Notes under the pieces: generated by a model
The model's database searches: none
What the model was told of the DNA's origin: nothing
What the model saw: the letters and a program-made list of their open reading frames with translations, nothing else
Position numbers and translations under genes: made by a program
From: Streptomyces sp. CG1
GTDB taxonomy: Bacteria > Actinomycetota > Actinomycetes > Streptomycetales > Streptomycetaceae
Direction: 5' to 3'
Assembly (NCBI RefSeq): GCF_041080625.1
Contig: NZ_CP163518.1
Span: forward strand, 5,084,001-5,148,000
DNA length: 64,000 bases
Shown: in pieces, positions 36,508-49,342 of the stretch
How positions within the stretch are numbered: position 1 is the first letter of the stretch
Layout: each line of letters begins with the position of its first letter

Positions 36508-36921
36508 ATGACGGTTGACGTCGGTGGCCTTCAGGACCTTCCCTCCGAAGTGCTAGCGCAGGCAACCACCGCGTTCGGGCTGCTTGCCGCACGGTCCAGA
36601 CTGCACATCATGTGGGCTTTGTCCCAGGGTGAGAGCGATGTCACCGGCCTGGCCGGCCGGATGGACATGGCACTGCCCGCGGTCAGCCAGCACCTGGCGA
36701 AGCTCAAGCTCGCCGGTCTGGTCGCCGCCCGCCCCGAGGGCCGGCGGCAGGTCTACTACGTTGATGACCCCGACATTGCCGCCACCATCGGCGCGATGAT
36801 CGCACTGCTGGCCGCGCGGGCAGAACAGAGACCACTTCAGCCGTTGTCACCGCTGGAATTCACCCTGGGGAGACTGGACCGTAAGGCGGCATGGCGTTCG
36901 CCTGCTACGGCAGCGGACTGA
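36508..36921 (+). CDS. ArsR/SmtB-family regulator, copy 1
   Basis: Winged-helix repressor type of 137 residues. The recognition region (SDVTGLAGRMDMALPAVSQH then LAKLKLAGLVAARPEGRRQV) and the wing ending YYVDD are typical. The usual metal ligands are missing: there is no CxC in helix 3, and helix 5 (PDIAATIGAMIALLAARAE) lacks the His residues of the zinc/nickel sensors, so the signal may not be a metal. It shares most of its length with the protein at 47761 and differs by a longer C-terminal tail. RBS GGAGAGGG before the ATG. Candidate regulator of the TTGCGCAA sites. Confidence 0.92.
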   Translation: MTVDVGGLQDLPSEVLAQATTAFGLLAARSRLHIMWALSQGESDVTGLAGRMDMALPAVSQHLAKLKLAGLVAARPEGRRQVYYVDDPDIAATIGAMIALLAARAEQRPLQPLSPLEFTLGRLDRKAAWRSPATAAD

Positions 36922-37146: not shown

Positions 37147-38766
37147 TCAGTTGACGCAGGGGATGCCGCCCATCTTCACCGAGTCGCCCGCGAAGGCCGT
37201 CGAGGGGACGGGCGAGGGCTCGCTCGCCGGTGTCGTGGCCTGCGTGGATCCGGAGGGCCCGGCCGAGGTCGTGGCGGGCGGGGTGAAGTCCGTGCCGAGG
37301 GTGATCTGGACTCGGCCGGCCGGGACGGAGGGGGCGGCGACGGGTGCCGCAGCGCCCAGGCGGTCGGCGATCTGCTGGGCCGCCGCCTGCGCGCCGGAGC
37401 CGTAGGCGATCATTGCGCTCGGCTGGGTGGCAGCGTTGGACGTTCGCCCGGCTGTGTAGCCCAGGGCCGCAAGGGCTCTGAGTTCCGCTGCGGCGGCGCC
37501 GGTTCTGCCGGAGCCGTTGAGGACATCCACGGTGGCGGGGGCTGCAGACACGGCCGGGGACGGCTTCCCGGCCTCCGCGCCGGCGCTGGGCGAGGCGGAC
37601 GCATCATGTCCGATCATCGCCTGGACGATCGCCCTTACCCGCTCGGGATCGACGAGGTTGACCTCCTCGTTGTTGCGGTGGCCGAAACCGGCGATCGGCA
37701 GGGTGTGGAACTCCACCTTCCCGCCGGTGAGGTTGGTGGCCTGCTGGGCGAAGTCCAGCACGTTCAGCTTGCTGTCGATGACCAGGTCCTTCTTCACGAC
37801 GCCGAACAGGCCCTGGAGCTTGCCGAGATCGCCGAACACCCCGTCGGTCTTCAGCTTGTGCGTGACGGAGGACAAGAACGCCTGCTGGCGGTGGGTGCGG
37901 TCGAGGTCGCCCATGGGGAGCCCGTGGCGCTGGCGTACGAAGGCCAGGGCCTGTTTGGGGTTCAACTCGTGCAGCCCGGCGGGGAAGTTGGCGCCGGAGT
38001 ACCTGTCGTGCACCGGGTGCTTGAGGCAGACCTGGATCGGCTGGAGGACCTTGGCGATGTCGTAGAAGCCCAGAAGATTGACCTCGGCGAAGTGGTCGAC
38101 GGGCACATCGAGGAACTTCTGCATCGTGACCAGGGTGGCTTCCCGCCCGGCCTCCCTGCTCTGCGCTTCCAGGTCAGAGCCTTTGACACCCTGCGCGCTC
38201 AGCCGGTCGTGCACGCTGGTGTAGGCGTTGGCATAGGCTTCCTTGATCTTGTAGTGGCCCTGGACGGATCCGTCGCCGTTGAACGTCTGGACGTAGTCGT
38301 CACGCGGGACGGAGAACGCCGTGACCTTCCCGCCGTCGGCCGGGATGTGCATCAGGATCAGCGTGTTGGTGTTGTAGTACCCGATGTCGCTCGATCCGGC
38401 GTGCAACTGGTCCTGCACGAACTGCCTCGGCAGATCGTTGCCGTTCATGTCCTTGCGCGAGTCCAGGCCGATCAGCAGCAGATTCACCGAGTTGTCCAGA
38501 TGCCGAGGAGCCCCCTTGTTGGCCGCGTCCAGCGCATCAGAGGTGTTCAGGCCGCCGTTGATCCAGGAGTACGTGGCCCAGGTGACCCCACTGGCCAGCA
38601 GAACTGCCGCCGACGCCACACCGACCACGACCCGCGCCGCGACCACCCACGGCGAACGCCGTGCCGACCTACGACGGCGCGCCGGCCCACCGCCCACCGC
38701 AGCGTTGCTGCGCCGACCCCGCTCCGCCCTGCCCCGGCTCGCTACGCTCCGGTGTACCTCAGGCAC
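37147..38766 (-). CDS. LCP family glycopolymer transferase with LytR_C domain, copy 1
   Basis: LytR-CpsA-Psr protein of 539 residues, which attaches teichoic-acid-like or other polymers to peptidoglycan from lipid carriers. Basic cytoplasmic N-terminus, one transmembrane helix (VVVGVASAAVLLASGVTW), then the LCP domain with NLLLIGLDSRKD, TNTLILMHIPAD, AFSVPRDDYVQ and ALAFVRQRHGLPMGDLDRTHRQ, which hold the conserved Asp and Arg residues of the pyrophosphate pocket. C-terminal LytR_C domain (VDVLNGSGRTGAAAAELRAL) and a Pro/Ser tail. GTG start overlapping the DUF6542 gene end by eight bases. Confidence 0.93.
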   Translation of the reverse strand: MPEVHRSVASRGRAERGRRSNAAVGGGPARRRRSARRSPWVVAARVVVGVASAAVLLASGVTWATYSWINGGLNTSDALDAANKGAPRHLDNSVNLLLIGLDSRKDMNGNDLPRQFVQDQLHAGSSDIGYYNTNTLILMHIPADGGKVTAFSVPRDDYVQTFNGDGSVQGHYKIKEAYANAYTSVHDRLSAQGVKGSDLEAQSREAGREATLVTMQKFLDVPVDHFAEVNLLGFYDIAKVLQPIQVCLKHPVHDRYSGANFPAGLHELNPKQALAFVRQRHGLPMGDLDRTHRQQAFLSSVTHKLKTDGVFGDLGKLQGLFGVVKKDLVIDSKLNVLDFAQQATNLTGGKVEFHTLPIAGFGHRNNEEVNLVDPERVRAIVQAMIGHDASASPSAGAEAGKPSPAVSAAPATVDVLNGSGRTGAAAAELRALAALGYTAGRTSNAATQPSAMIAYGSGAQAAAQQIADRLGAAAPVAAPSVPAGRVQITLGTDFTPPATTSAGPSGSTQATTPASEPSPVPSTAFAGDSVKMGGIPCVN

Positions 38767-39286
38767 CGCTGACCCTCCTGCTCCGCCGGGACCGGATCAT
38801 GCGCACCGCCAGCACAGCGATCACCGCGAGCTCGGCCCCCGCCATCGCCGGGAAGGCGTCGACGGCCCAGTGCACAGCCGACGTGGCCAGCGTCTTGCCG
38901 GATCCTGCACCCGCGACCTGCTCGGTGACGACGGCGACCGCCATCACCACCAGCGGAGGCGCGCACACCACCCACCAGGCACCGGCCCGGGAACACGCCC
39001 GCGCGGCCACGGCCCCCGCGAGCACCGCGGTGATCATGAACGCCCATCCCGGCGTCGATCCGAGCAGCTCATCCACGACGGCGCCGACGACCGGCAGACC
39101 CCAGGCCAGCAGTCCCGGCCGACCAGACCTCGCCGGGCGCCCGCCCGCTCTGTGGCGTGACGACGCTGCCCCACGGGCCCGCGGGCCTGGCACACCGCGT
39201 GCTCCGCGGGATGTCGCAGAAGATCTCACGCCGCTGCGGGAGAGATACGTGTCCACGCCCACAGCGCCGGCGCGCTGACCTGTCAT
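38759..39286 (-). CDS. DUF6542-type membrane protein
   Basis: Protein of 175 residues with four hydrophobic segments (GLLAWGLPVVGAVVDELLG, WAFMITAVLAGAVAARAC, WWVVCAPPLVVMAVAVVTE, AELAVIAVLAVRMI) after a basic N-terminal part. The helix order and the WVVxAPPLVxxAVA pattern fit DUF6542, found beside LCP proteins or alone in actinobacteria. I take the ATG at 39286 because AAGGA lies six bases upstream; ATG 39292 is the alternative. First gene of a two-gene operon with LCP copy 1 and preceded by the strongest TTGCGCAA palindrome. Confidence 0.75.
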   Translation of the reverse strand: MTGQRAGAVGVDTYLSRSGVRSSATSRGARGVPGPRARGAASSRHRAGGRPARSGRPGLLAWGLPVVGAVVDELLGSTPGWAFMITAVLAGAVAARACSRAGAWWVVCAPPLVVMAVAVVTEQVAGAGSGKTLATSAVHWAVDAFPAMAGAELAVIAVLAVRMIRSRRSRRVSGA

Positions 39287-39400
39287 CCGCATTCCTTGTC
39301 CGAATCCGCTGACGCGTCGTGGTGGACCGGGCCCGACTCGCATGCGCGGCGCGCCCCGACTCGCGCCCTCGGGTTCCAAGACGTTCCGCACCCACCCGAA

Positions 39401-39428
39401 GCTTGCACAGTTGCGCAATATTGCAAGC
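39401..39428. promoter_or_regulatory. TTGCGCAA operator, site A (DUF6542-LCP1 operon)
   Basis: 28-base palindrome: GCTTGCA, 3-base spacer, TTGCGCAA, 3-base spacer, TGCAAGC; all 22 non-spacer bases are symmetric. It lies 115 bases before the DUF6542 start codon. The half-site TTGCA..TGCAA is of the kind bound by ArsR/SmtB dimers. Confidence 0.65.
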
Positions 39429-39823
39429 GTGGAGGCTATTTCATGCGAGCGAACAGCGGCAATTCCTGCAGGTCAATGTCGCAGGGTCCCAGTGATGAGA
39501 GTGAATAGTGGGGGTACGCGGCGACCCTCGCAGAGGACAGGGGCGAGGACTGTCCGAGGAGGCGGTCTGCGCTAGCGGCAGTCCTCCTTCAACCTGCCGA
39601 TATCGCCCATCCGCCTGCACAGCACGTAACTTTTGACGCTACACCAAGGGCAGTCAGCCAGCATCTGGCCAGGCTCAGCAGCCCTACGCCGGCTACTCGA
39701 CAGGGTTGGCCAAGCGGCTTCGAGTTGACAGTCCAACGGCAGGCCAGGTGCCGACACGGCGGGCATCCCGGGCGGGCCATCCGCCATGTCTGAAGACGGC
39801 AGGCGCGCTTGTGTGGTCGGCCA
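39429..39823. other. intergenic, no supported gene
   Basis: 395 bases between site A and a small membrane protein gene. A 71-codon minus-strand frame (39572 to 39787) ends with a Cys-rich stretch (LADCPWCSVKSYVLCRRMGD) but has weak codon bias and no ribosome binding site, so I do not call it. Confidence 0.4.
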
Positions 39824-39997
39824 TCACTTCGGGCCGCGGTAGCCGCGCAACAGGAGCCAGCCGACCAGCGGGAGGCCAATGAGCAGCGCGCCGAGGGTGA
39901 TCGACAGGAAGTGCGAGCCGAACGGCGCAGGGTCATGGCCGCCCGCAGCAACAGCGGAGAGGTGGTTCACGGCGGTGGGCAGCGCGGCAGAGTGCAT
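39824..39997 (-). CDS. small single-span membrane protein
   Basis: Frame of 57 codons with good third-position GC: short N-terminal part rich in His/Ala, a hydrophobic segment (FLSITLGALLIGLPLVGWLL) and a short basic tail (LRGYRGPK). This is the layout of a small C-in or N-out membrane peptide. No family recognised. RBS weak (GGTAGG). It lies alone between DUF6542-LCP1 and LCP copy 2, on the same strand. Confidence 0.5.
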   Translation of the reverse strand: MHSAALPTAVNHLSAVAAGGHDPAPFGSHFLSITLGALLIGLPLVGWLLLRGYRGPK

Positions 39998-40229
39998 GCC
40001 GTCAACCTACCCGGCTTGCTGCAGCACCCCCGGGGGGATCGTGCCCAGCAGAATGAGGAAAACATCAGCGTCCACTCAGCCATGGTCGCCGTCCAAGTGC
40101 GGCGGCTCCCACGAGGCGTGGGGCTGCCGATATCCGCACTTGCAGTGCAGTCGCGAGGTGTCCTTCTCGGTCGTCGCGCACTGAGAGTGGCCACCCTTGC
40201 TCCTTGTGCGCAGCGATCCCTTGGAATCA

Positions 40230-41477
40230 CTAGCCGGCCACGGGTTCGTCGTTTTGGAGCTTGTTGAAGAGGACCTTGGCTTCGGTCTGGTTCCACAGGA
40301 GGGAATCGCCGTCTGCCGTTGGGTAGTTGGGGTTGGCGACCGGGACGACTGTCGAAGTGCCCTGGCCGCCGGAGACGTCCTTCATGGCGAGCGCCAGCTT
40401 CGCCAGGTCGTACAGGCTCATGCCCTTGTCGACGCTCAACGTCTCCAACCCCGCACCCAGGACGGGGTACAGCTTGAACGGGTTCAGCAACGTCCCCGGA
40501 GTCGCCGTCTGCTGGGCGACCGCGTGCAGGAACTGCTGCTGGTGCTTCTCCCGGCCCAGGTCCTGGTTCGCCTCCTGGTGCCGCTCCCTGACGAACGCCA
40601 GCGACTGCGCCCCGTTGAACTCCTGGCAGCCCGCCTTGAAGTCCGAGCCCGAGTCCTTGTCCTTGATCGGCTTGTCCAGGCACAGGTTCACCCCGCCCAG
40701 CGTGTTCACCAGGTTCACGAACCCGCCGAAGCCGATCTCCGCGTAGTGATCGATGTGCAGGCCCGTGTTGTACTCCACCGTCTGCGCGAGCAACTGCCCG
40801 CCGCCCCACGAGAACGCCACGTTCAGCTTGTGCTTCGACGCCGGATAGTGCTTGCCCGTCTGCCCGGTGAACGCCGGGATCGTCACATAGCTGTCCCGCG
40901 GCAGGCTCAGCAGCGTGTCCCCGTTCGACCCCACGTGCAGGACCATCATCGTGTCGCTGTTGCCGAACTGCCCCTCGTCGTCGCTGCCGACATGCAGCGC
41001 CTGCTGCTGCGCGTGCGTGAGGTTGCCGCGATTGTCGGAACCCGCGATCAGATAGTTCGTACCCTGGTCCTGCGGCGGACGGTTCGCCAGCGCGCCAAGA
41101 TCGATCGTCCGGGCCAGCTTGCTGTCCGCCCAGAAATACGTCCCCACCGACGTGACCAGCAGCACAACCACCAGCGCCAGCACGCCGTACCCGATCCGCC
41201 TGCGCCAGCTCTTCCGGCGGCCCGAACCCACCCGGCGGCCCGCCCGGTACGTACCGTCGCCGTCGCCTCGCACCTGCTGCGGTACGCCACCGCGCGCCGC
41301 CGCCCCGCGCGGCGACAGCTCAGGCGGCAGGAGCGGCTCGGCGGGGGAGCCCTGCGGCGCACCGGAGTACCGCCGCGCCTGCGGTGCGTATCCGTCCCGC
41401 GGCCTCCCCACCTGCGGCATCACACGAGAGCCTTCCGGCTCGCCATCCTCGGTCCAGCCTCCTGGCCATCCGTTCAT
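40230..41477 (-). CDS. LCP family glycopolymer transferase, copy 2
   Basis: LCP protein of 415 residues without the LytR_C domain. Disordered N-terminus of about 95 residues, a transmembrane helix (IGYGVLALVVVLLVTSVGTY), and the LCP domain with NYLIAGSDNRGN, SDTMMVLHVGSNGD, LLSLPRDSYVTIP and SLAFVRERHQEANQDLGREK. It ends soon after the LCP domain. There is no TTGCGCAA site upstream, unlike copies 1, 3 and 4; an AT-rich promoter-like stretch lies at about 41530 to 41590 instead. Confidence 0.93.
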   Translation of the reverse strand: MNGWPGGWTEDGEPEGSRVMPQVGRPRDGYAPQARRYSGAPQGSPAEPLLPPELSPRGAAARGGVPQQVRGDGDGTYRAGRRVGSGRRKSWRRRIGYGVLALVVVLLVTSVGTYFWADSKLARTIDLGALANRPPQDQGTNYLIAGSDNRGNLTHAQQQALHVGSDDEGQFGNSDTMMVLHVGSNGDTLLSLPRDSYVTIPAFTGQTGKHYPASKHKLNVAFSWGGGQLLAQTVEYNTGLHIDHYAEIGFGGFVNLVNTLGGVNLCLDKPIKDKDSGSDFKAGCQEFNGAQSLAFVRERHQEANQDLGREKHQQQFLHAVAQQTATPGTLLNPFKLYPVLGAGLETLSVDKGMSLYDLAKLALAMKDVSGGQGTSTVVPVANPNYPTADGDSLLWNQTEAKVLFNKLQNDEPVAG

Positions 41478-41823
41478 GACCGGCAGTGTGCCCGTCGAAC
41501 CCGACCGAGACTGTGGCCGACGTCATTTTGTAGCAGTACTGATGGATTGGTCATAGCACTGCCATTTATCTATACGAGTAATTTTGATCTACGCCTTGGC
41601 ACGAATCGATGTCAAGCGCCGACGGTGGCCGCAGGCAGTGTGGCGGGGGTCGAGGAGGCGGCGCCGTTACTGACCTTGTTAGCGTGAGGCGCTCGGAGGT
41701 CTGGCCCTGCTGGCAAAAACGAAGCCGGCTCCTCGATGACACTGCCCACCGGCTGCCGCGTCTCGCAGCGGCAGGAGTTGATCCGCATGACTTCCTGTTT
41801 TCATCCTGAGGAAGGCCGCGCCG
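41478..41823. other. intergenic between LCP copy 2 and STAS gene
   Basis: 346 bases, no supported gene. The half near LCP copy 2 is AT-rich for this genome (CATTTATCTATACGAGTAAT) and is its likely promoter region. Confidence 0.45.
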
Positions 41824-42255
41824 TCACGGAGACTGGCTGTCTGGTGTGCCGTTTTCGGGTGCGCCCTCTTCGTGAATGTCGAGCAGGTGGGTCAGGCCGA
41901 GCCGTTGGAACGTGGTACGGGCCTGGGCGCTGGCGTGGGTGACGATGACCCTTGTGCCGTACCGCTGCGCCCTGAGCAACGCGGGGAGGAAGGCACGGCC
42001 GCCGTCACTGGCCATGAAGGTGACACGTTGGAGATCCACTTCCACGATGCGGGGATGCGTCCGGAGAGCGTTGCGCAGGCCCTTGCCCACCCGCTCGGCG
42101 TTTGTCGCGGTGATCTCCCCCGACAGCCGGACCACGACGTGATCCTCTGCCTGCCTCGTGCGGACCGTGCGCCGCCGGAACCGCTGCAGCGCGCCGCGTG
42201 CGGTTCCCCAGAGACTGCGGTGTCCGCGTGGTGGGGCGGGTGTGGGATCCGGCAT
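41824..42255 (-). CDS. STAS domain protein (anti-sigma antagonist-like)
   Basis: Protein of 143 residues with a C-terminal STAS domain (HVVVRLSGEITATNAERVGK, IVEVDLQRVTFMASDGGRAF). The Ser in FMASDGG lies where anti-anti-sigma factors are phosphorylated, though the usual DSSG is changed to ASDG. A basic N-terminal segment (RFRRRTVRTRQ) is extra. It may take part in partner switching with an anti-sigma kinase not present in this window. Same strand as, and 18 bases after, the next unknown gene, so probably co-transcribed with it. Confidence 0.8.
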   Translation of the reverse strand: MPDPTPAPPRGHRSLWGTARGALQRFRRRTVRTRQAEDHVVVRLSGEITATNAERVGKGLRNALRTHPRIVEVDLQRVTFMASDGGRAFLPALLRAQRYGTRVIVTHASAQARTTFQRLGLTHLLDIHEEGAPENGTPDSQSP

Positions 42256-42273
42256 TGAGTGTCCCCAATCGCA

Positions 42274-42570
42274 TCAGGGTGTGTTCCGTCCGTGGCGCTG
42301 GATGATCCAGGCTGCGCCCTGTTCGGCCAGTGCTCTCCGCCGTTCCCGACGCGTGCGTCTCCGGGGCGCGGGCGAAATGCCGCGTCTCTGGCCCGGAATT
42401 ACCACGAGCGTTGCAAGTCGTTCCGCGGCGCGCGCCAGTTCGGCCTGCAGTCGCTGATGCCGTCCAGGGGATGTGGTCCTCAGCAGGGCCGTGTAGAGCC
42501 CTTCGACCTCGGCCACGGCGGCTCCCAGCCGGAGATTCGCGTCGCGTCGTTGAGCGTCGCCGTGCGGCAT
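42274..42570 (-). CDS. hypothetical protein, helical and basic
   Basis: Protein of 98 residues from the ATG 42570, with GGAGAGGG about nine bases upstream. Mostly helical and charged (LGAAVAEVEGLYTALLRTTS, then ELARAAERLATLVVIPGQ), with a very basic C-terminal half (RRRTRRERRRALAEQ). No domain recognised. It lies between a STAS gene and another unknown gene on the same strand. Confidence 0.6.
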   Translation of the reverse strand: MPHGDAQRRDANLRLGAAVAEVEGLYTALLRTTSPGRHQRLQAELARAAERLATLVVIPGQRRGISPAPRRRTRRERRRALAEQGAAWIIQRHGRNTP

Positions 42571-42665
42571 GGATGTTTTCCCTCTCCGGGCATTTCCAGG
42601 ACATTGCGACCCCAGGCCGATATCGATTGATGTGCTACGGCTGGCCTTCTCGACGGCCGGGACCA

Positions 42666-42935
42666 CTAGATGCCGTCCTGGACCAGCAAGGCGATCCGGT
42701 CGGGGTCGTAGACCGCCCAGCGCGGCGCTGGGACGCCGGACAGGCGCAGGCGGCACAGGGTGGTGCCACGGGGGTCGGTCCACCAGGCGGTGATGGTGCC
42801 CGGCCACGGCCATCCGGCGGGGTCGGACACAGTCACGGGCCGGTAGGTGTGCCGGATCAGGTCGTCCGGGCCTGGTAAGGGGCATCCTGTCGCCAGTTCT
42901 TCCAGCAGATGCTTCGCCGCGGACTCGCCTCGCAT
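42666..42935 (-). CDS. hypothetical protein with TTGCGCAA site upstream
   Basis: Protein of 89 residues from the ATG 42935, preceded by GAGGGGGAGGG. It is Trp- and Pro-rich (PAGWPWPGTITAWWTDPRGT, then APRWAVYDPDRIALLVQDG) and looks like a small beta-strand protein. The family is unknown to me, though similar short proteins occur in other Streptomyces accessory regions. The frame runs further up through the operator, but that start lacks an RBS. Confidence 0.65.
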   Translation of the reverse strand: MRGESAAKHLLEELATGCPLPGPDDLIRHTYRPVTVSDPAGWPWPGTITAWWTDPRGTTLCRLRLSGVPAPRWAVYDPDRIALLVQDGI

Positions 42936-42968
42936 GGTCCGGCCCTCCCCCTCGGCTCGGTCTACAAC

Positions 42969-42996
42969 AGTTTCATTATTGCGCAAGTGACGCACT
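42969..42996. promoter_or_regulatory. TTGCGCAA operator, site D
   Basis: TTGCGCAA at 42979 to 42986, in the opposite orientation to the other three (CACTTGCGCAATAA on the minus strand). Outer half-sites are poorly conserved. It lies 44 bases before the start of the 89-residue protein. Confidence 0.4.
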
Positions 42997-43016
42997 TTTC
43001 TGGGGTTTCATCTGTG

Positions 43017-44597
43017 TCAGCGGACGCTGCCTGCCCGGGGTTGGCCGTAGGAGAGGTCGGAGCACGGGTCGTCGTCGGAGCGGGTGCTGTCTGCACTGGG
43101 AGCGGGACCGGATGTGGGTGGCTGCGTGACCGGTGTGGTGTTCGTCCGGCCGAGGATCACGGTGATGCCCGGGTCGGCGGTCGGTTGGAGCTGTGCGCCA
43201 GGGAAAAGCGGGGCGACCGTCTCGGCCTCGGTCCTGTGGCCTGGGCCGTACCGGACGAGTGTGACGGGGTAGTCCTCGCCCTCGTTGCCAATCCCGGTGA
43301 CCGTGAAGCCGTGTCCGCTCAGGGTCCTGGCCGCCTGGGAAGCGAGGCCGGCGACCGGCGTGCCGTTGTGGACCCGTACGGCGATCCCGTGTCCGAAGAC
43401 GGACGGGCCGCCGGCGCTCGATGCCGGGGTGGTCGTGGTCGCCGCGGGTGGCGTCCGCGTCGCAGGGCCGGTTTTCCGGCCGTCGACCGGGCGGTCCGCC
43501 CGCAGTGCCGCCCACAGCCGGTCGGCGTCGGGGCGGACGACGGCAACGCGTGAACCCTGGTAGCGCCAGGGCAAGGTGACGAACTTGGTGTTGTGCAGGT
43601 CGATGTCCTTCAGGGTCATGGCGAAGGAGACGAGCTTGTCCGCCGTGCCCAGTCCCGGGTCGACGGTGAGCGACTGGACGGCTGCCTCGGCGAGGGGCAG
43701 GAGGTTCGCCGGGGTGATGCCATCGCTCCTGACTTTCTTGATGAGGCTCGCGACAAAAGCCTGCTGCCGTTTGATGCGCCCGATGTCGGAGCCGTCGCCG
43801 ATACCGTGCCGGATGCGGACGTAGTCGAGGGCTGGCCCTCCGGCCAGAGTCTGGACGCCTTTGTGGAAGAGGAGAGCGCCGCGGGTGGCGCGGTTCGGGT
43901 TGAGGTCTTTCTGGTAGACGTCCTGCGGGACGCACACGCTCACGCCGCCGACCGCCTCGGTCAGCTTCGCGAACGCCTTGAAGTCGACGACGACTGTGTG
44001 GTCCACCCGCAGCCCGGTCAGCTTCTCTACGGTGTTCTGGGTGCAGACGGGGTCCCCTTTGGGGGTCTGGCCGACCGAGTAGGCCGCGTTGAACACGGTG
44101 TCGGGCCGCGGTGCGCTCCAGGATCCGTCGGGCAGGCGGCATGGCGGGATGGTGACCAGTGTGTCCCGGGGGATCGACACGACGACGGCGTGCCGGTGGT
44201 CGCCGTAGAGGTGCAGCAGGAACGCGGTGTCGGAGCGGCCCACGTCGTCCTTGTTCCCCCCACCCAGCGCGTTGTTGCCGCCCACGCGTGCGTCGGACCC
44301 GATGACCAGGACGTTCTCCCCGTTCCCCGCTCCGCCCGGCCGATTACTGGAGACGCCTCCCGCATCGAACGTGCCGATGCCCCCGGCCAGCGCCAGACAG
44401 ATCCGGCCCACCCCGGCCGTGGCCAGCACCAGCAGCGACAAGCCCATGGCCAGGGCCCGGAACCGGCCGCGGCACCCGGGCCGAGGCCCGCGTGCGACAT
44501 CGCGCGCCGGGCGTCTGGACGGCGTGCGCCGGGGGGAGCCGGGAGCCGTGAGGCGGCGGCTTCCCGGAGCCGTCGGCACCCGATGACTGGTCGGCAT
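43017..44597 (-). CDS. LCP family glycopolymer transferase with LytR_C domain, copy 3
   Basis: LCP protein of 526 residues. Arg/Pro-rich cytoplasmic tail, transmembrane helix (MGLSLLVLATAGVGRICLAL), LCP domain with NVLVIGSDARVGG, DTAFLLHLYGDHR, VVSIPRDTLVTIPPC, VCVPQDVYQKD and YVRIRHGIGDGSDIGRIKRQ, then a LytR_C domain (AVRVHNGTPVAGLASQAART). Extra Cys pairs in the LCP domain (PPCRLPDG, DPVCTQN) fit a disulfide outside the cell. Start ATG 44597, with TTGCGCAA site B 36 bases upstream. Confidence 0.93.
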   Translation of the reverse strand: MPTSHRVPTAPGSRRLTAPGSPRRTPSRRPARDVARGPRPGCRGRFRALAMGLSLLVLATAGVGRICLALAGGIGTFDAGGVSSNRPGGAGNGENVLVIGSDARVGGNNALGGGNKDDVGRSDTAFLLHLYGDHRHAVVVSIPRDTLVTIPPCRLPDGSWSAPRPDTVFNAAYSVGQTPKGDPVCTQNTVEKLTGLRVDHTVVVDFKAFAKLTEAVGGVSVCVPQDVYQKDLNPNRATRGALLFHKGVQTLAGGPALDYVRIRHGIGDGSDIGRIKRQQAFVASLIKKVRSDGITPANLLPLAEAAVQSLTVDPGLGTADKLVSFAMTLKDIDLHNTKFVTLPWRYQGSRVAVVRPDADRLWAALRADRPVDGRKTGPATRTPPAATTTTPASSAGGPSVFGHGIAVRVHNGTPVAGLASQAARTLSGHGFTVTGIGNEGEDYPVTLVRYGPGHRTEAETVAPLFPGAQLQPTADPGITVILGRTNTTPVTQPPTSGPAPSADSTRSDDDPCSDLSYGQPRAGSVR

Positions 44598-44622
44598 GGA
44601 TGACGCCCCTCATCCGCCCTGT

Positions 44623-44650
44623 GATCGCACAGTTGCGCAATGTAGCAAGC
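44623..44650. promoter_or_regulatory. TTGCGCAA operator, site B (LCP copy 3)
   Basis: TTGCGCAA at 44633 to 44640 with flanks ATCGCACAG and TGTAGCAAGC: each outer half-site differs from the perfect palindrome of site A by one or two bases. CAGTTGCGCAAT is identical to site A. Confidence 0.6.
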
Positions 44651-44793
44651 GTTGCTCGCGGGGCCGCGCTGAACACTCCGGCGGTGTACCCGACGCTTCG
44701 GCCGGCCGCCTGGCGTCAGGTCACCAGTCGCCGCCGAAGTCGCCACCGCCGTCGGAGCCCGGGACACCCACGGTGCCGACCGAGGGGGCCTGG

Positions 44794-45327
44794 TCAGGGT
44801 TGCGGCACGCTGCCCATCTCGGCGGTGAAGGTCACGGGGTCACTGTCGTAGCCGCGGATCATTTCGTGCATGCGCCACTGCCCGGAGTCGTCACGGACGA
44901 ACTCCGCGACCGTCGTGGCCGTGGATTCCGCCACCTGCGCAAAGTCGTCCTTCAGTAGTTCGGTGTACTTCTCGGCGACCAGCACACCGGCGTTGCGGAT
45001 GTCGCCGAAGGTGCGCGGGCCCCCGTCCTGGTGGATGGCAACCCCGACCACGACCCTGCCGTAGACAGGTGCCAGCCGGTCGAACTCCAGGACCATCACC
45101 TCGACGAAGCCGAATCCCATACCGGTCTCGCTGTGCCGGGGCATGGTGATGGTGCCGTCCGGTGACCGGCGCTCGTAGTCGACCACATACACGGGACGCC
45201 CGTACAGATCGTCCACGGAGTAGGTCGCAGCGATGATGTCCAAGTGCCGGGGCGGCTCCCCCAACGGGCTGGGATCCCACTTGAGCTTGACCTCGACCTT
45301 GCCCAGCCCCGCGCTGGTAGTGCTCAC
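44794..45327 (-). CDS. TerD family stress protein
   Basis: TerD-like protein of 177 residues from the GTG at 45327 (VSTTSAGLGKVEVKLKWDPS), which has GGGGAAGG upstream. Conserved parts: HLDIIAATYSVDDLYG, GFGFVEVMVLEFDRLAPVYG, TFGDIRNAGVLV, and DDFAQVAESTATTVAEFVRD. TerD proteins bind calcium and act in tellurite, phage and envelope-stress responses, probably as membrane-linked scaffolds. This is the shorter, divergent actinobacterial type. It lies between LCP copies 3 and 4 on the same strand. Confidence 0.88.
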   Translation of the reverse strand: MSTTSAGLGKVEVKLKWDPSPLGEPPRHLDIIAATYSVDDLYGRPVYVVDYERRSPDGTITMPRHSETGMGFGFVEVMVLEFDRLAPVYGRVVVGVAIHQDGGPRTFGDIRNAGVLVAEKYTELLKDDFAQVAESTATTVAEFVRDDSGQWRMHEMIRGYDSDPVTFTAEMGSVPQP

Positions 45328-45538
45328 CGTCGGTGCCTTCCCCGCGTCTCTTGGCCGCGCCGACACTCGTACGCGGCCCACATACGGCATGTGACCGTCA
45401 ATTTGATGCTTCCTTAGCAGGCTACGTGGCGCAGGTGCAGGTGGAGTTGCGGATCACACCGGCCTGCGCAATCCCACCGTGAGGGCCGGTCAGTCACAGA
45501 GCGATCGCCGCTGCTGCCCGCCAAGGCTCGTCCCGGCG

Positions 45539-47221
45539 TCAGGAGTCTGAGTCCGGCTGGCTGCTCGCGGCTGCGTACGCCTGGGCCGGGGTCATGCTGA
45601 CGCCGTTGAGCGAGACCGTCTTGTACGGACTGACCTTCGCGCAGGTCTTGGACTGGTCGGCGGTCTCGGCGTGAGCGTTGGACACGGCTGCGTGGGTGTC
45701 GGCGGGCGCCGGGGAGCTGCCGCCCGACCCGGAGCCGTACGTAGTGCCGCCGGGCCAGTCGCTGCCGATGACCAGGGTCAGTCCGGTGCCGCTGCCCTGC
45801 TTGAGGTGCGAGGCGGGCACGTCGAGGGCGTGGGCCACGGCCTCGGCCTGCGGCTTCAGGCCGCTGCCGTAGGTGAGGGTGGTGGATGTCGTACTCAGCC
45901 CGTTGCCCGAGTTCGTGGCCGAGCTGAAGCCCTTGTCGGTGAGAGCGGTAGCGATCTCGGAGGCGCGGCCGCCGATGCCGGTGCCGTTCTCGACCTTCAC
46001 CGCGATCGAGGCGGTGTCGACCGGCGTCGGCGTCGCGGAGCCCGTGGCAGGGGACTTCTTGCCCGACGTATCGCTCAGCGATTGGTCGCCCGCGATAGCG
46101 GCGAACAGGGACTTGGCACCGGGGCCGGGCACCACCCGTTCCTTGTTGTTGGGATCGGGGGCGGTCTGCATGGTGGTGAAGGTGGTCGCCTTCGGCGGAA
46201 CCTTGTTCAGGTCGGATGCCAGCCCGATGAGTTTGCTGACGCTGCCCAGGCCGTCGTCGACGGTGAGTGCCTTGGTGGCCGCATCCGCGAGGCCGTAGAC
46301 GGCGGTGGGATCGGTCAGCGTGCCCGCGCTCTTGAACTTGCGGATCATCGAGCCGAGGAACATGTGCTGCGCGTAGGTACGGCCCAGGTCGCTGCCGTCA
46401 CCGAAACCGTGCCGGGAACGGACGAACTCCAGCGCCCCGACGCCCTTGAGGGTGTGGGTGCCCTTGGACAGCTTCAGGTGGGAGTAGGTGTCGTAGACGT
46501 TGTCGCTGACGCAGACCGACACGCCGCCGACGGCGTCGGACATGTTCACCACACCGGCGAAGTCGAGCTTGACGAAGTGGTCGATCGGGATGCCGGTGAG
46601 CTGGTGGACAGCGGCCACCTGACAGGCCGGACCATACGAGAGGGCACTGTTGATCATGCCGTAGTAGCCGGACGTGCTCTGCTTCGATGTGGGGTCGGTG
46701 CAAGCCGGGACCTTGGTCATGGTGTCGCGGGGAACGCTCATCACAGTGGCGTTGGAGCGGTCGGCGGCGATGTGCACCACCATCTCAACGTCCGCGTTGC
46801 CCCAGCCGGACTCCACGCCGGTCTGTGAACAGCCGCCGCCCAGCTGGCAGTCGGTGGCGCTGGTGCGGCCGTCCGAGCCGATCACCAGGATGTTGATCGG
46901 CGTACGGCCGAAGGCGTCCGCCTTCTCGCTGCCGCCGCTGCCTTCGAGCCCGAAGCTGTGGATGTTGCCGTTCAGGTGCTGGTAGAGCCACCACCCGCCG
47001 CCGGCGGCGATCAGCAGCAGCAGGGACAGGCTTATTCCGGTGATCCGCAGCGCGCGTTTGCCGCGCCTTGCCGAACGCCCCCGGCCTCGCCCTCGGCGCC
47101 GCGTCTGCGTCCGGCCGCCCGAGGAGCGTCGGCTGCCGGGTTCGTCCATGCGCTGACGGGGCACTTGGCCCCTGCGGTTACGCGTGGCCTGGCCGGCCGG
47201 GTCGTCCCGCAGGTCGCTCAT
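45539..47221 (-). CDS. LCP family glycopolymer transferase with LytR_C domain, copy 4
   Basis: LCP protein of 560 residues from the ATG 47221. Very basic N-terminus (RRRGRGRGRSARRGKRALR), transmembrane helix (ITGISLSLLLLIAAGGGWWL), LCP domain with NILVIGSDGRTSA, NADVEMVVHIAADRSNATV, MSVPRDTMTKVPAC, VCVSDNVYDTY and FVRSRHGFGDGSDLGRTYAQ, and a LytR_C domain (AVKVENGTGIGGRASEIATA). A short C-terminal module follows with SKTCAKVSPYKTVSLNG. Preceded by TTGCGCAA site C. Confidence 0.93.
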   Translation of the reverse strand: MSDLRDDPAGQATRNRRGQVPRQRMDEPGSRRSSGGRTQTRRRGRGRGRSARRGKRALRITGISLSLLLLIAAGGGWWLYQHLNGNIHSFGLEGSGGSEKADAFGRTPINILVIGSDGRTSATDCQLGGGCSQTGVESGWGNADVEMVVHIAADRSNATVMSVPRDTMTKVPACTDPTSKQSTSGYYGMINSALSYGPACQVAAVHQLTGIPIDHFVKLDFAGVVNMSDAVGGVSVCVSDNVYDTYSHLKLSKGTHTLKGVGALEFVRSRHGFGDGSDLGRTYAQHMFLGSMIRKFKSAGTLTDPTAVYGLADAATKALTVDDGLGSVSKLIGLASDLNKVPPKATTFTTMQTAPDPNNKERVVPGPGAKSLFAAIAGDQSLSDTSGKKSPATGSATPTPVDTASIAVKVENGTGIGGRASEIATALTDKGFSSATNSGNGLSTTSTTLTYGSGLKPQAEAVAHALDVPASHLKQGSGTGLTLVIGSDWPGGTTYGSGSGGSSPAPADTHAAVSNAHAETADQSKTCAKVSPYKTVSLNGVSMTPAQAYAAASSQPDSDS

Positions 47222-47266
47222 CTCCCACTCCCATGACGGGTCGGGCCCCGGCAGGCCGGCACCCTC

Positions 47267-47294
47267 ACTTGCAGAGTTGCGCAATCGTACAGAG
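47267..47294. promoter_or_regulatory. TTGCGCAA operator, site C (LCP copy 4)
   Basis: TTGCGCAA at 47277 to 47284, left half-site ACTTGCA well conserved, right half-site degenerate (TACAGAG). It lies 56 bases before the LCP copy 4 start. Confidence 0.55.
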
Positions 47295-47760: not shown

Positions 47761-48120
47761 GTGGCGGTTGACGTCGGTGGTGTTCAGGACCCTCCCGCCG
47801 AAGTGATGGCGGGGGTGGCCGCCGCGTTCGGGCTGCTTGCCTCACCGGCCAGGATACGCATCATGTGGATCTTGTCCCAGGGCGAGAGCGACGTCACCGG
47901 CCTGGCCGGCCGGGTGGGCGTGGCTCTGCCTGCGGTCAGTCAGCACCTGGCGAAGCTCAAGCTCGCCGGTCTCGTCGCCTCCCGCCCCGAGGGCCGGCGA
48001 CAGGTCTACTACGTTGATGACCCCGACATTGCCGCCACCATCGGCGCGATGATCACACTGCTGGCCGCGCGGGCAGGAGAGTCGTCACTGCGGCGAAGGC
48101 TGGACCGCAAGTCGGCATGA
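47761..48120 (+). CDS. ArsR/SmtB-family regulator, copy 2
   Basis: Winged-helix regulator of 119 residues, GTG start. Almost the same as copy 1 from the start to helix 5: SQGESDVTGLAGRVGVALPA, VSQHLAKLKLAGLVASRPEG, YYVDDPDIAATIGAMITLL. As in copy 1, the known metal-binding residues of ArsR sensors are absent. It lies 616 bases before a CadD-like permease gene on the same strand, and beyond LCP copy 4. The shared recognition helix means both copies probably bind the same DNA sequence. Confidence 0.92.
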   Translation: MAVDVGGVQDPPAEVMAGVAAAFGLLASPARIRIMWILSQGESDVTGLAGRVGVALPAVSQHLAKLKLAGLVASRPEGRRQVYYVDDPDIAATIGAMITLLAARAGESSLRRRLDRKSA

Positions 48121-48736: not shown

Positions 48737-49342
48737 GTGGCCGGGGTTGTCGCGACCGCGGCCACGGCGGTGGGGCTGTTCGCCGGGACCAATATCGATG
48801 ACCTCGTCGTGCTGGCGGTGCTGTTTCTGTCGAGCCGGGCGACCGGGGTGCTCAGGGCCGGGCAGATCTGGGTGGGGCAGGCCGCCGGGTTCACCGTTTT
48901 GGTGGCTGTCTCGGTGGGTGCCGCGCTCGGCCTGGGCATCGTCCCTGACCGGTGGGTCGGGTTACTTGGCCTGCTCCCACTGGCGTTGGGGGCCTTGGGC
49001 CTGGTCAGAGCCGCTCGGGCACAGCGCTCCGGGGAGCCGGTCCCGGCGGTTGCCGCCACAGGCCCGGCCTCGGTGATGGCCCTGACCGTCATCAACGGGG
49101 CCGACAACCTGACCGTCTACCCTCCGGTCTTGCGGACCATCGGCGTCGGCTCGGCCGTGGTCACCGTCGTGGTGTTCGCCGCCGGGGTGGTGGTGTGGTG
49201 CCTGCTGGGCTCCTGGCTCGGCTCCCATCGGAAGATCGTCGAGGTCGTCGGACGGTGGGGACACTGGATCATCCCCGCCGTCTTCGTCATCATCGGGGTC
49301 ATCATTCTGCTCGGTTCCGGCGTCCTGAGCACGATCCGCTGA
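48737..49342 (+). CDS. CadD-like cation permease
   Basis: Membrane protein of 201 residues with six hydrophobic segments, of the cadmium-resistance transporter family (PF03596). Family marks: VGLFAGTNIDDLVVLAVLFL near the N-terminus with the acidic IDD pair, and the internal counterpart VMALTVINGADNLTVYPPVL with an acidic residue in the second half. Probably moves a cation or small ion; cadmium is a guess from the family name. GTG start. It contains a TTA codon (48962 to 48964, residue 76), so translation needs the bldA tRNA. Converges with the DUF1003/RyR gene. Confidence 0.85.
   Translation: MAGVVATAATAVGLFAGTNIDDLVVLAVLFLSSRATGVLRAGQIWVGQAAGFTVLVAVSVGAALGLGIVPDRWVGLLGLLPLALGALGLVRAARAQRSGEPVPAVAATGPASVMALTVINGADNLTVYPPVLRTIGVGSAVVTVVVFAAGVVVWCLLGSWLGSHRKIVEVVGRWGHWIIPAVFVIIGVIILLGSGVLSTIR

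What the first reader, a model, noticed from the sequence alone, without database searches (positions are those of the whole stretch)
39401..47294. A palindromic TTGCGCAA motif marks a possible ArsR-controlled cell-envelope regulon
Four copies of TTGCGCAA, three with the identical context AGTTGCGCAAT, lie in front of minus-strand genes: the DUF6542-LCP1 operon (39411), an 89-residue unknown protein (42979), LCP copy 3 (44633) and LCP copy 4 (47277). Distances to the start codons are 36 to 115 bases. The best copy is a 28-base palindrome with perfect outer half-sites GCTTGCA / TGCAAGC. Two ArsR-type regulators with nearly the same recognition helix flank the group. That ArsR dimers bind TTGCA-type palindromes is family knowledge; that these two control LCP transferases is my inference and, as far as I know, not described.
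Basis: partly seen in the sequence, partly recalled or inferred. Interest (0 to 1): 0.82.

Follow-up and report, generated by a model that had tools for sequence, protein, structure and literature searches.

The report
ArsR-linked operator for cell-wall genes
A 28-base palindrome in front of cell-wall-building genes looks like a conserved switch site that travels with one family of small ArsR-type regulators in Streptomyces, which points to an undescribed circuit that may link magnesium transport and cell-envelope upkeep.

Summary
In detail: four TTGCGCAA copies against 0.4 expected, each upstream of a minus-strand gene. The real element is a palindrome of about 28 bp, TT-N6-TTGCGCAA-N6-AA; one of the four window sites fits it exactly, three miss one outer letter. 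A matrix built from other genomes ranks the four window sites 1-4 (27-38; next unrelated hit 6). The genome has six arsR genes of one subfamily, all near such sites. Strict operator and ArsR subfamily co-occur in 61 genus genomes as 22 both, 1+1 mixed, 37 neither, and in 40 of a second draw as 14/0/0/26. Sites precede LCP, DUF6542-LCP, TatA, TerD, GlsB-like and arsR genes, some unlinked to arsR. ArsR often sits beside an MgtA-type Mg2+ ATPase gene. Best reading: an ArsR repressor with a multi-locus cell-envelope regulon. Binding, direction and signal are not shown; the classical ArsR/SmtB metal ligands are absent, so the signal is open (Mg2+, acid or envelope stress are candidates).

The parts
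39401..39428 (.). Operator 1, perfect 28-bp palindrome, upstream of the DUF6542-LCP1 operon
   Evidence: matrix score 38.3, rank 1 in the window; fits the strict pattern
42969..42996 (.). Operator 2, upstream of the 89-aa unknown gene
   Evidence: matrix score 29.3; one outer letter off the strict pattern; 2 of 2 homologues in other genomes have a site (L101, a matrix locus, and L129, fetched because it carries an operator)
44623..44650 (.). Operator 3, upstream of LCP3
   Evidence: matrix score 33.6; one outer letter off the strict pattern; LCP3-type genes elsewhere have a site in 32 of 37 cases
47267..47294 (.). Operator 4, upstream of LCP4
   Evidence: matrix score 26.9; one outer letter off the strict pattern; LCP4-type genes elsewhere have a site in 23 of 24 cases
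36508..36921 (+). ArsR-type regulator, no cysteine, 78% identical to the second copy
37147..38766 (-). LCP1 (LytR_cpsA_psr + LytR_C), second gene of its operon
   Evidence: Pfam PF03816 E 3.7e-35
38759..39292 (-). DUF6542 protein, first gene of the LCP1 operon (start 39292 or 39286)
   Evidence: PF20177; start codons
40230..41477 (-). LCP2, no operator upstream
   Evidence: PF03816; no matrix hit upstream
41824..42255 (-). STAS-domain protein
   Evidence: PF01740
42666..42935 (-). 89-aa protein of unknown function
   Evidence: No Pfam or NCBIfam match; homologues with a site
43017..44597 (-). LCP3 (LytR_cpsA_psr + LytR_C)
   Evidence: PF03816 E 1.1e-39
44794..45390 (-). TerD-domain protein
   Evidence: PF02342
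45539..47221 (-). LCP4 (LytR_cpsA_psr + LytR_C)
   Evidence: PF03816 E 3.5e-41
47761..48120 (+). ArsR-type regulator, no cysteine
   Evidence: PF01022 42.3 bits; NF033788 76.3 bits, cut-off 55

Best explanation
TT-N6-TTGCGCAA-N6-AA is the operator of one ArsR subfamily (six paralogues in this genome, two of them flanking the island). An ArsR dimer, or two dimers side by side, binds this palindrome in the promoters of cell-envelope genes and most likely represses them. When an intracellular signal weakens binding, LCP transferases (which attach wall glycopolymers), DUF6542 and the 89-aa protein are made together, and in related loci also TatA, TerD, a GlsB-like protein and, through the arsR-ATPase gene pair, an MgtA-type Mg2+ ATPase. 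Shown here: the operator, its conservation, its co-occurrence and clustering with the ArsR subfamily, and the genes behind it. Inferred: ArsR binding, repression, control of the ATPase, and cross-talk among paralogues. Unknown: the signal. The classical metal-binding Cys/His residues are absent. Mg2+ shortage, acid or envelope damage are candidates suggested by gene content and by one published acid-stress transcriptome.
For: Four sites against 0.4 expected. 10 of 10 exact 11-mers in the genome lie within 8 kb of the six arsR genes. A matrix from 39 TTGCGCAA copies in 25 arsR neighbourhoods of other genomes finds the four window sites first and shows symmetric outer TT/AA (84-88%) that was not selected for. 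Strict operator and ArsR (E <= 1e-25) split 22/1/1/37 in 61 genomes (p 2e-14); in 40 genus genomes of a second draw, with ArsR counted from 168 bits, 14/0/0/26 (p 4e-11). 29 of 31 arsR loci have a strict operator within 12 kb. 64 of 76 named arsR loci outside the matrix have a site scoring 18 or more. 12 of 19 unlinked strict operators lie in front of TerD, LCP, TatA, DUF6542-LCP1 or two unnamed recurrent families. Sites precede LCP4 23/24, LCP3 32/37, DUF6542 3/3, TerD198-like 5/7, unrelated genes 4/338. Among 33 LCP3-type promoters aligned on the site, the 28-bp block stands out and the flanks do not. Distant ArsR relatives (L154-L156 of one genus, L159 of another family) have similar sites upstream of arsR itself. 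The recognition helix is nearly invariant.
Against: No binding or expression data. Three of the four window sites miss one outer letter of the strict pattern. Neither window arsR has a site in its own promoter. One genome has the ArsR without a strict operator (G028), one the operator without the ArsR (G005). The 168-bit line of the second draw was set after seeing the gap; at the call's own cut-off (1e-24) three more genus genomes count as ArsR without operator, 14/3/0/23. 12 of 76 named loci have no site. Two of 25 genus neighbourhoods have no TTGCGCAA (L085, L095) and in L099 the only copy lies inside a called gene. 7 of 19 unlinked operators are not clearly at a recurrent target. Outside the genus 26 further genomes without a close ArsR have the strict pattern against 12 with the reversed control. 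Genomes are related, so p-values overstate independence. A different ArsR-like regulator also has TTGCGCAA beside its gene (L021, L103, L106).
Confidence: 0.85

Rival explanations
1. The palindrome is a real operator but another regulator binds it, for example the second ArsR-like protein next to hisF/priA, which has paired TTGCGCAA words beside its gene.
For: Such a gene with AAGTTGCGCAA...TTGCGCAACTT lies at L106, the same paired words beside hisF at L103, and a similar arrangement in the own genome at L021. It explains some AGTTGCGCAAT copies in genomes that lack the subfamily.
Against: Its site has a different layout (two cores 14 bp apart). The strict operator is absent from 37 of 38 genus genomes that lack the subfamily, including G013 and G032, which have the other regulator's site.
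Confidence: 0.08
2. The sites look alike only because the island arose by recent duplication of LCP genes with their promoters.
For: LCP genes are paralogous, and a similar STAS/89-aa/LCP block with sites exists at 297-315 kb in the same genome.
Against: Sites precede unrelated genes (TatA, TerD, GlsB-like, DUF6542, 89-aa) and in LCP3-type promoters the 28-bp pattern stays while the flanks differ. The four window sites share little beyond the palindrome.
Confidence: 0.03
3. The sites belong to this ArsR, but it activates rather than represses, or acts only locally with no physiological regulon.
For: Direction cannot be read from sequence. Sites lie 35-124 bp upstream of the start codons, where either mode is possible.
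Against: Recalled family knowledge: most characterised ArsR/SmtB proteins are repressors. Unlinked sites at a coherent set of genes argue for a physiological regulon (12 of 19).
Confidence: 0.12

Closest known systems
ArsR/SmtB family one-component regulators (PDB matches: 13ct/6o8k ArsR-family entries, SmtB, NmtR, CzrA)
   Same: HTH_5 winged-helix protein of about 120 aa; these solved relatives match the subfamily profile; palindromic site near targets
   Different: No Cys in either window protein and no SmtB-like His pair in the consensus; the targets are cell-envelope genes at several loci, where the recalled norm is one metal-efflux operon
Sigma-E envelope-stress regulon of Streptomyces coelicolor (PMC6767563, passages seen)
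   Same: Controls LCP genes (sco3044, sco5358) and other wall genes
   Different: Sigma-factor promoters, not a repressor palindrome; the words ArsR and TerD do not occur in its main text
PhoPQ-MgtA type Mg2+/envelope control of enterobacteria (recalled)
   Same: Pairs an MgtA-type ATPase with envelope remodelling
   Different: A two-component system sensing outside the cell; here a one-component ArsR is the only recurrent regulator that I labelled

Membership tests
ArsR/SmtB regulator family | ArsR-type winged helix-turn-helix | tested here: met
   Window 47761 copy: PF01022 42.3 bits (cut-off 22); NF033788 76.3 bits (cut-off 55)
ArsR/SmtB metalloregulators (metal-sensing subset) | Cys ligands at the alpha-3 (ELCVCDL-like, recalled) metal site | tested here: not met
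   The two window proteins hold no Cys; the position reads GESDV, with GECDV in 4 of 31 aligned members (L078, L081, L093, L098)
ArsR/SmtB metalloregulators (metal-sensing subset) | Asp/His alpha-5 zinc site (ligand positions recalled) | tested here: not met
   The profile aligned to SmtB shows DDPD and no His pair in the consensus
ArsR/SmtB regulator family | Binds a palindromic operator | not testable with these tools
   Co-occurrence, clustering and conservation only; no binding assay
ArsR/SmtB regulator family | Autoregulation: operator at its own promoter | tested here: inconclusive
   Not met for the two window genes; 26 site-to-arsR assignments within 300 bp in 79 named loci; sites upstream of some distant arsR genes
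LytR-CpsA-Psr (LCP) transferases | LytR_cpsA_psr domain above curated cut-off | tested here: met
   4 of 4 LCP genes in the island
MgtA-type (P3B) Mg2+ ATPase beside arsR in other loci | TIGR01524 above curated cut-off 610.75 | tested here: met
   4 of 4 tested: 705, 703, 650.5 and 708.5 bits; none lies beside the window arsR genes
Sigma-E regulon | Sigma-E promoter upstream of the LCP genes | not tested
   No scan for the sigma-E consensus was made

The most novel reading that the evidence does not exclude
An ArsR subfamily without the classical metal ligands is a one-component sensor of low Mg2+, acid or envelope damage that co-ordinates Mg2+ import (MgtA-type ATPase) with attachment of anionic wall glycopolymers (LCP), Tat export and TerD proteins: a one-component Gram-positive analogue of PhoPQ, expanded in this genome to six regulators with partly divided targets.
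Probability: 0.25. Interest if true: 0.78.

Novelty: new variant of a known kind. Interest (0 to 1): 0.64.

Why it matters
LCP transferases attach glycopolymers to the wall of Gram-positive bacteria, and this island alone carries four copies whose division of labour is unclear. A named 28-bp operator plus a named regulator subfamily makes the control of several of them directly testable. It would tie wall assembly to TerD proteins, whose role is a long-standing puzzle (recalled), and perhaps to magnesium transport, and would give an ArsR branch a role outside heavy-metal resistance.

Tried and rejected
Chance: rejected (and the matrix built from other genomes). Random spread over the genome: TTGCGCAA itself is not enriched (65 against 108 for the reversed word) and the 11-mer with one mismatch only weakly (63 against 47); the exact 11-mer is confined to arsR clusters. 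Simple duplication: rejected by the differing flanks. A metal sensor of the classical kind: weakened by missing Cys/His. The CadD-family gene downstream of the second arsR (48737-49342) as key partner: no gene of the 79 named loci got that label, so treated as incidental. Own-genome TTGCGCAA sites away from arsR (11 loci looked at, L020-L030): 9 of 11 lie inside a called gene, one beside another ArsR-like gene, one between two unlabelled genes. UppP and PAP2 as direct targets: they are neighbours in L017 and UppP also in L129, but no site stands directly in front of them, so they are left out of the regulon as shown. Literature: nine searches; no listed title or abstract start describes this operator or an ArsR-LCP regulon. 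I opened two papers, as passages only (PMC7317143, PMC6767563); the library holds open-licence papers only. PHROGs gave one unnamed family.

Weak points of method: genes were called with a home-made GC-frame script and labelled by BLAST to own-genome references, so start codons and small genes are uncertain, and one site can be assigned to two genes. The 39 matrix sites were not cleaned; two (L079 12978, L081 13070) lie at the start of TatA coding sequence and one (L099) inside a gene, which dilutes the matrix. One search took all 79 named loci as independent of the matrix; one search showed that three (L175, L178, L200) are the same stretches as matrix loci and that one DUF6542 gene had been counted twice, so the rates given are those. 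Loci fetched because they carry the operator were kept out of those rates. The promoters were included only if they had a site scoring 18 or more.
Full report
Observation. TTGCGCAA occurs four times in the window, at 39411, 42979, 44633 and 47277; shuffling gives a mean of 0.40 and no shuffle of 100 reaches four. Three copies share AGTTGCGCAAT. All four lie upstream of minus-strand genes; gaps to the likely start codons are 35, 43, 55 and about 118-124 bp. Pfam confirms four LCP genes, DUF6542, STAS and TerD genes, an 89-aa protein without a Pfam match, and an ArsR protein for the copy that I scanned, 47761. The other ArsR (36508) is 78% identical to it.

Genome context. The window lies in an 11.1-Mb genome. 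TTGCGCAA alone is not enriched: 65 copies, against 108 of the reversed word. The exact 11-mer AGTTGCGCAAT occurs 10 times, in four clusters at about 305-307 kb, 5123-5131 kb (the window), 5412 kb and 9546-9552 kb; its reversed control has none. With one mismatch allowed the counts are 63 and 47. A protein search with the window ArsR finds six close copies including itself (63-99% identity), then a drop to 49%. Five lie in those four clusters, and each of the ten 11-mers is at most 8 kb from one of them. The sixth, at 948 kb, has a TTGCGCAA 1.4 kb away that scores 34 with the matrix. The other clusters again hold LCP genes; the one at 5.41 Mb also holds UppP, PAP2, an M48 peptidase, TatA and, next to arsR, a P-type ATPase.

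The operator. I fetched the neighbourhoods of 25 subfamily arsR genes from other genus genomes; 23 of 25 hold TTGCGCAA. A symmetric matrix from the 39 copies shows outer TT and AA (84-88%) at 10.5-11.5 positions either side of the centre, which the selection for the core did not impose. Scanning the window with it puts the four sites first (38.3, 33.6, 29.3, 26.9); the next non-overlapping hit scores 6.3. In 132,637 control positions one scored 14 or more. The operator is therefore a palindrome of about 28 bp, TT-N6-TTGCGCAA-N6-AA. Of the four window sites one fits this strict form and three miss one of its four outer letters.

Link to ArsR. The strict pattern was sought in the same 61 genus genomes, own genome included: 23 have it, 23 have the ArsR (E <= 1e-25), 22 have both, 37 neither (Fisher p 2e-14); the reversed pattern was found in one genome. 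In a class-wide draw of 394 genomes, 40 are of the same genus; with ArsR counted from 168 bits, where the scores leave a gap, they split 14 both, 26 neither, none mixed (p 4e-11). That line was set after seeing the scores; at the call's own cut-off three more genus genomes (98-109 bits) count as ArsR without operator. The own genome, G013 and G056 are in both draws. Outside the genus one genome (G219) has a close ArsR (182 bits), and it has the operator. Another 26 genomes outside the genus have the strict pattern against 12 with the reversed control; 20 of the 26 are of 2.5 Mb or less, and I take most of these as chance. The p-values ignore relatedness. 39 of 58 strict operators lie within 12 kb of an arsR, and 29 of 31 arsR loci have one that close.

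Targets. Of the 19 strict operators not within 12 kb of an arsR, 12 lie in front of a recurrent family: TerD (four), LCP (three), the 75-aa family (two), TatA, a 252-aa-type protein and, in G060, a DUF6542-LCP1 pair matching the one in the window. Seven do not clearly do so, two of them in the own genome (587314, 8556155). In 79 loci found by the ArsR profile in named genomes (75 Streptomyces, 3 Streptantibioticus, 1 Nonomuraea; the best 80 of 489 hits were kept), 67 have a site scoring 18 or more, 159 in all; assignments to genes starting within 300 bp include LCP 46, GlsB-like 30, arsR 26, TatA 24, TerD 19 and the 75-aa family 18, with 46 unlabelled (a site can count for two genes). Three of the 79 loci turned out to be matrix loci; without them 64 of 76 have a site, 152 in all. 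In these 76, sites lie upstream of LCP4 genes in 23 of 24, LCP3 in 32 of 37, DUF6542 in 3 of 3 and TerD198-like in 5 of 7; LCP1, the second gene of its operon, 0 of 4; STAS 0 of 1; unrelated genes 4 of 338. Among 33 distinct LCP3-type promoters, chosen for having a site and aligned on it, the 28-bp operator is the one strongly conserved block. Among 22 LCP4-type promoters an upstream block is conserved as well, so that set is less diverged.

The regulator. The recognition helix is nearly invariant across the subfamily. The two window proteins have no Cys, and the consensus lacks a His pair like that of SmtB in alpha-5 (ligand positions recalled), so the classical metal sites are not there; 4 of 31 aligned members do have one Cys in the alpha-3 region. 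Distant relatives L154, L155 and L156 (one other genus) and L159 (another family) have related sites upstream of their own arsR, which suggests that the operator logic is older than the genus. L153, L160, L162, L163 and L165 show none, L152 only a weak hit (13), L157 and L158 a different palindrome on the downstream side, and for L151, L161 and L164 the script found no reading frame.

Mechanism. Most likely the ArsR dimer represses envelope genes and releases them on a signal. An ATPase label occurs in 42 of the 79 named loci, and 4 of 4 such ATPases tested in other loci pass the curated Mg2+-ATPase model. No site was assigned directly to an ATPase gene in the named loci; control would run through the arsR-ATPase pair and is inferred. 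Wall glycopolymers bind Mg2+ (recalled), so joint control of Mg2+ import and LCP enzymes would make sense. In Streptomyces albulus at low pH a LytR-family gene (MAGL008579), a TerD gene with a nearby number (MAGL008582), HtpX and a cation ATPase with a distant number (MAGL005340) rise, while an ArsR-family gene (MAGL002769) falls (PMC7317143, passages). Whether any of these is an operator gene could not be checked here, and that paper assigns lytR to sigma-E, a rival for that data set.

Verdict. What remains is proof of binding, the direction of control and the signal.

Noticed in passing
L103, L106 (other genomes), L021 (own genome, 3093-3107 kb): A different ArsR-like HTH gene (seen at L106 and L021), next to hisF/priA-type genes, has two TTGCGCAA-type words about 14 bp apart, probably a separate operator; L103 has the words beside hisF.
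   Followed up: partly
L016 5626-6464: The P-type ATPase beside this arsR is present only as pieces in two frames; described only.
   Followed up: no
window 48737-49342: CadD-family (PF03596) gene downstream of the second arsR; no gene of the 79 named loci got that label.
   Followed up: partly
L157, L158: Distant ArsR genes of the same genus have a palindrome of TGTGCGCAAGC type nearby, a possible sister operator with another specificity.
   Followed up: no
L017 6271-6498 and homologues in many arsR loci: A 75-aa family without Pfam or NCBIfam match is a frequent operator target (18 assignments).
   Followed up: partly
LCP4-type promoters: A second conserved block (CCTCACCTGTGAA) lies upstream of the operator in LCP4-type promoters, possibly a promoter element or another binding site.
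   Followed up: no
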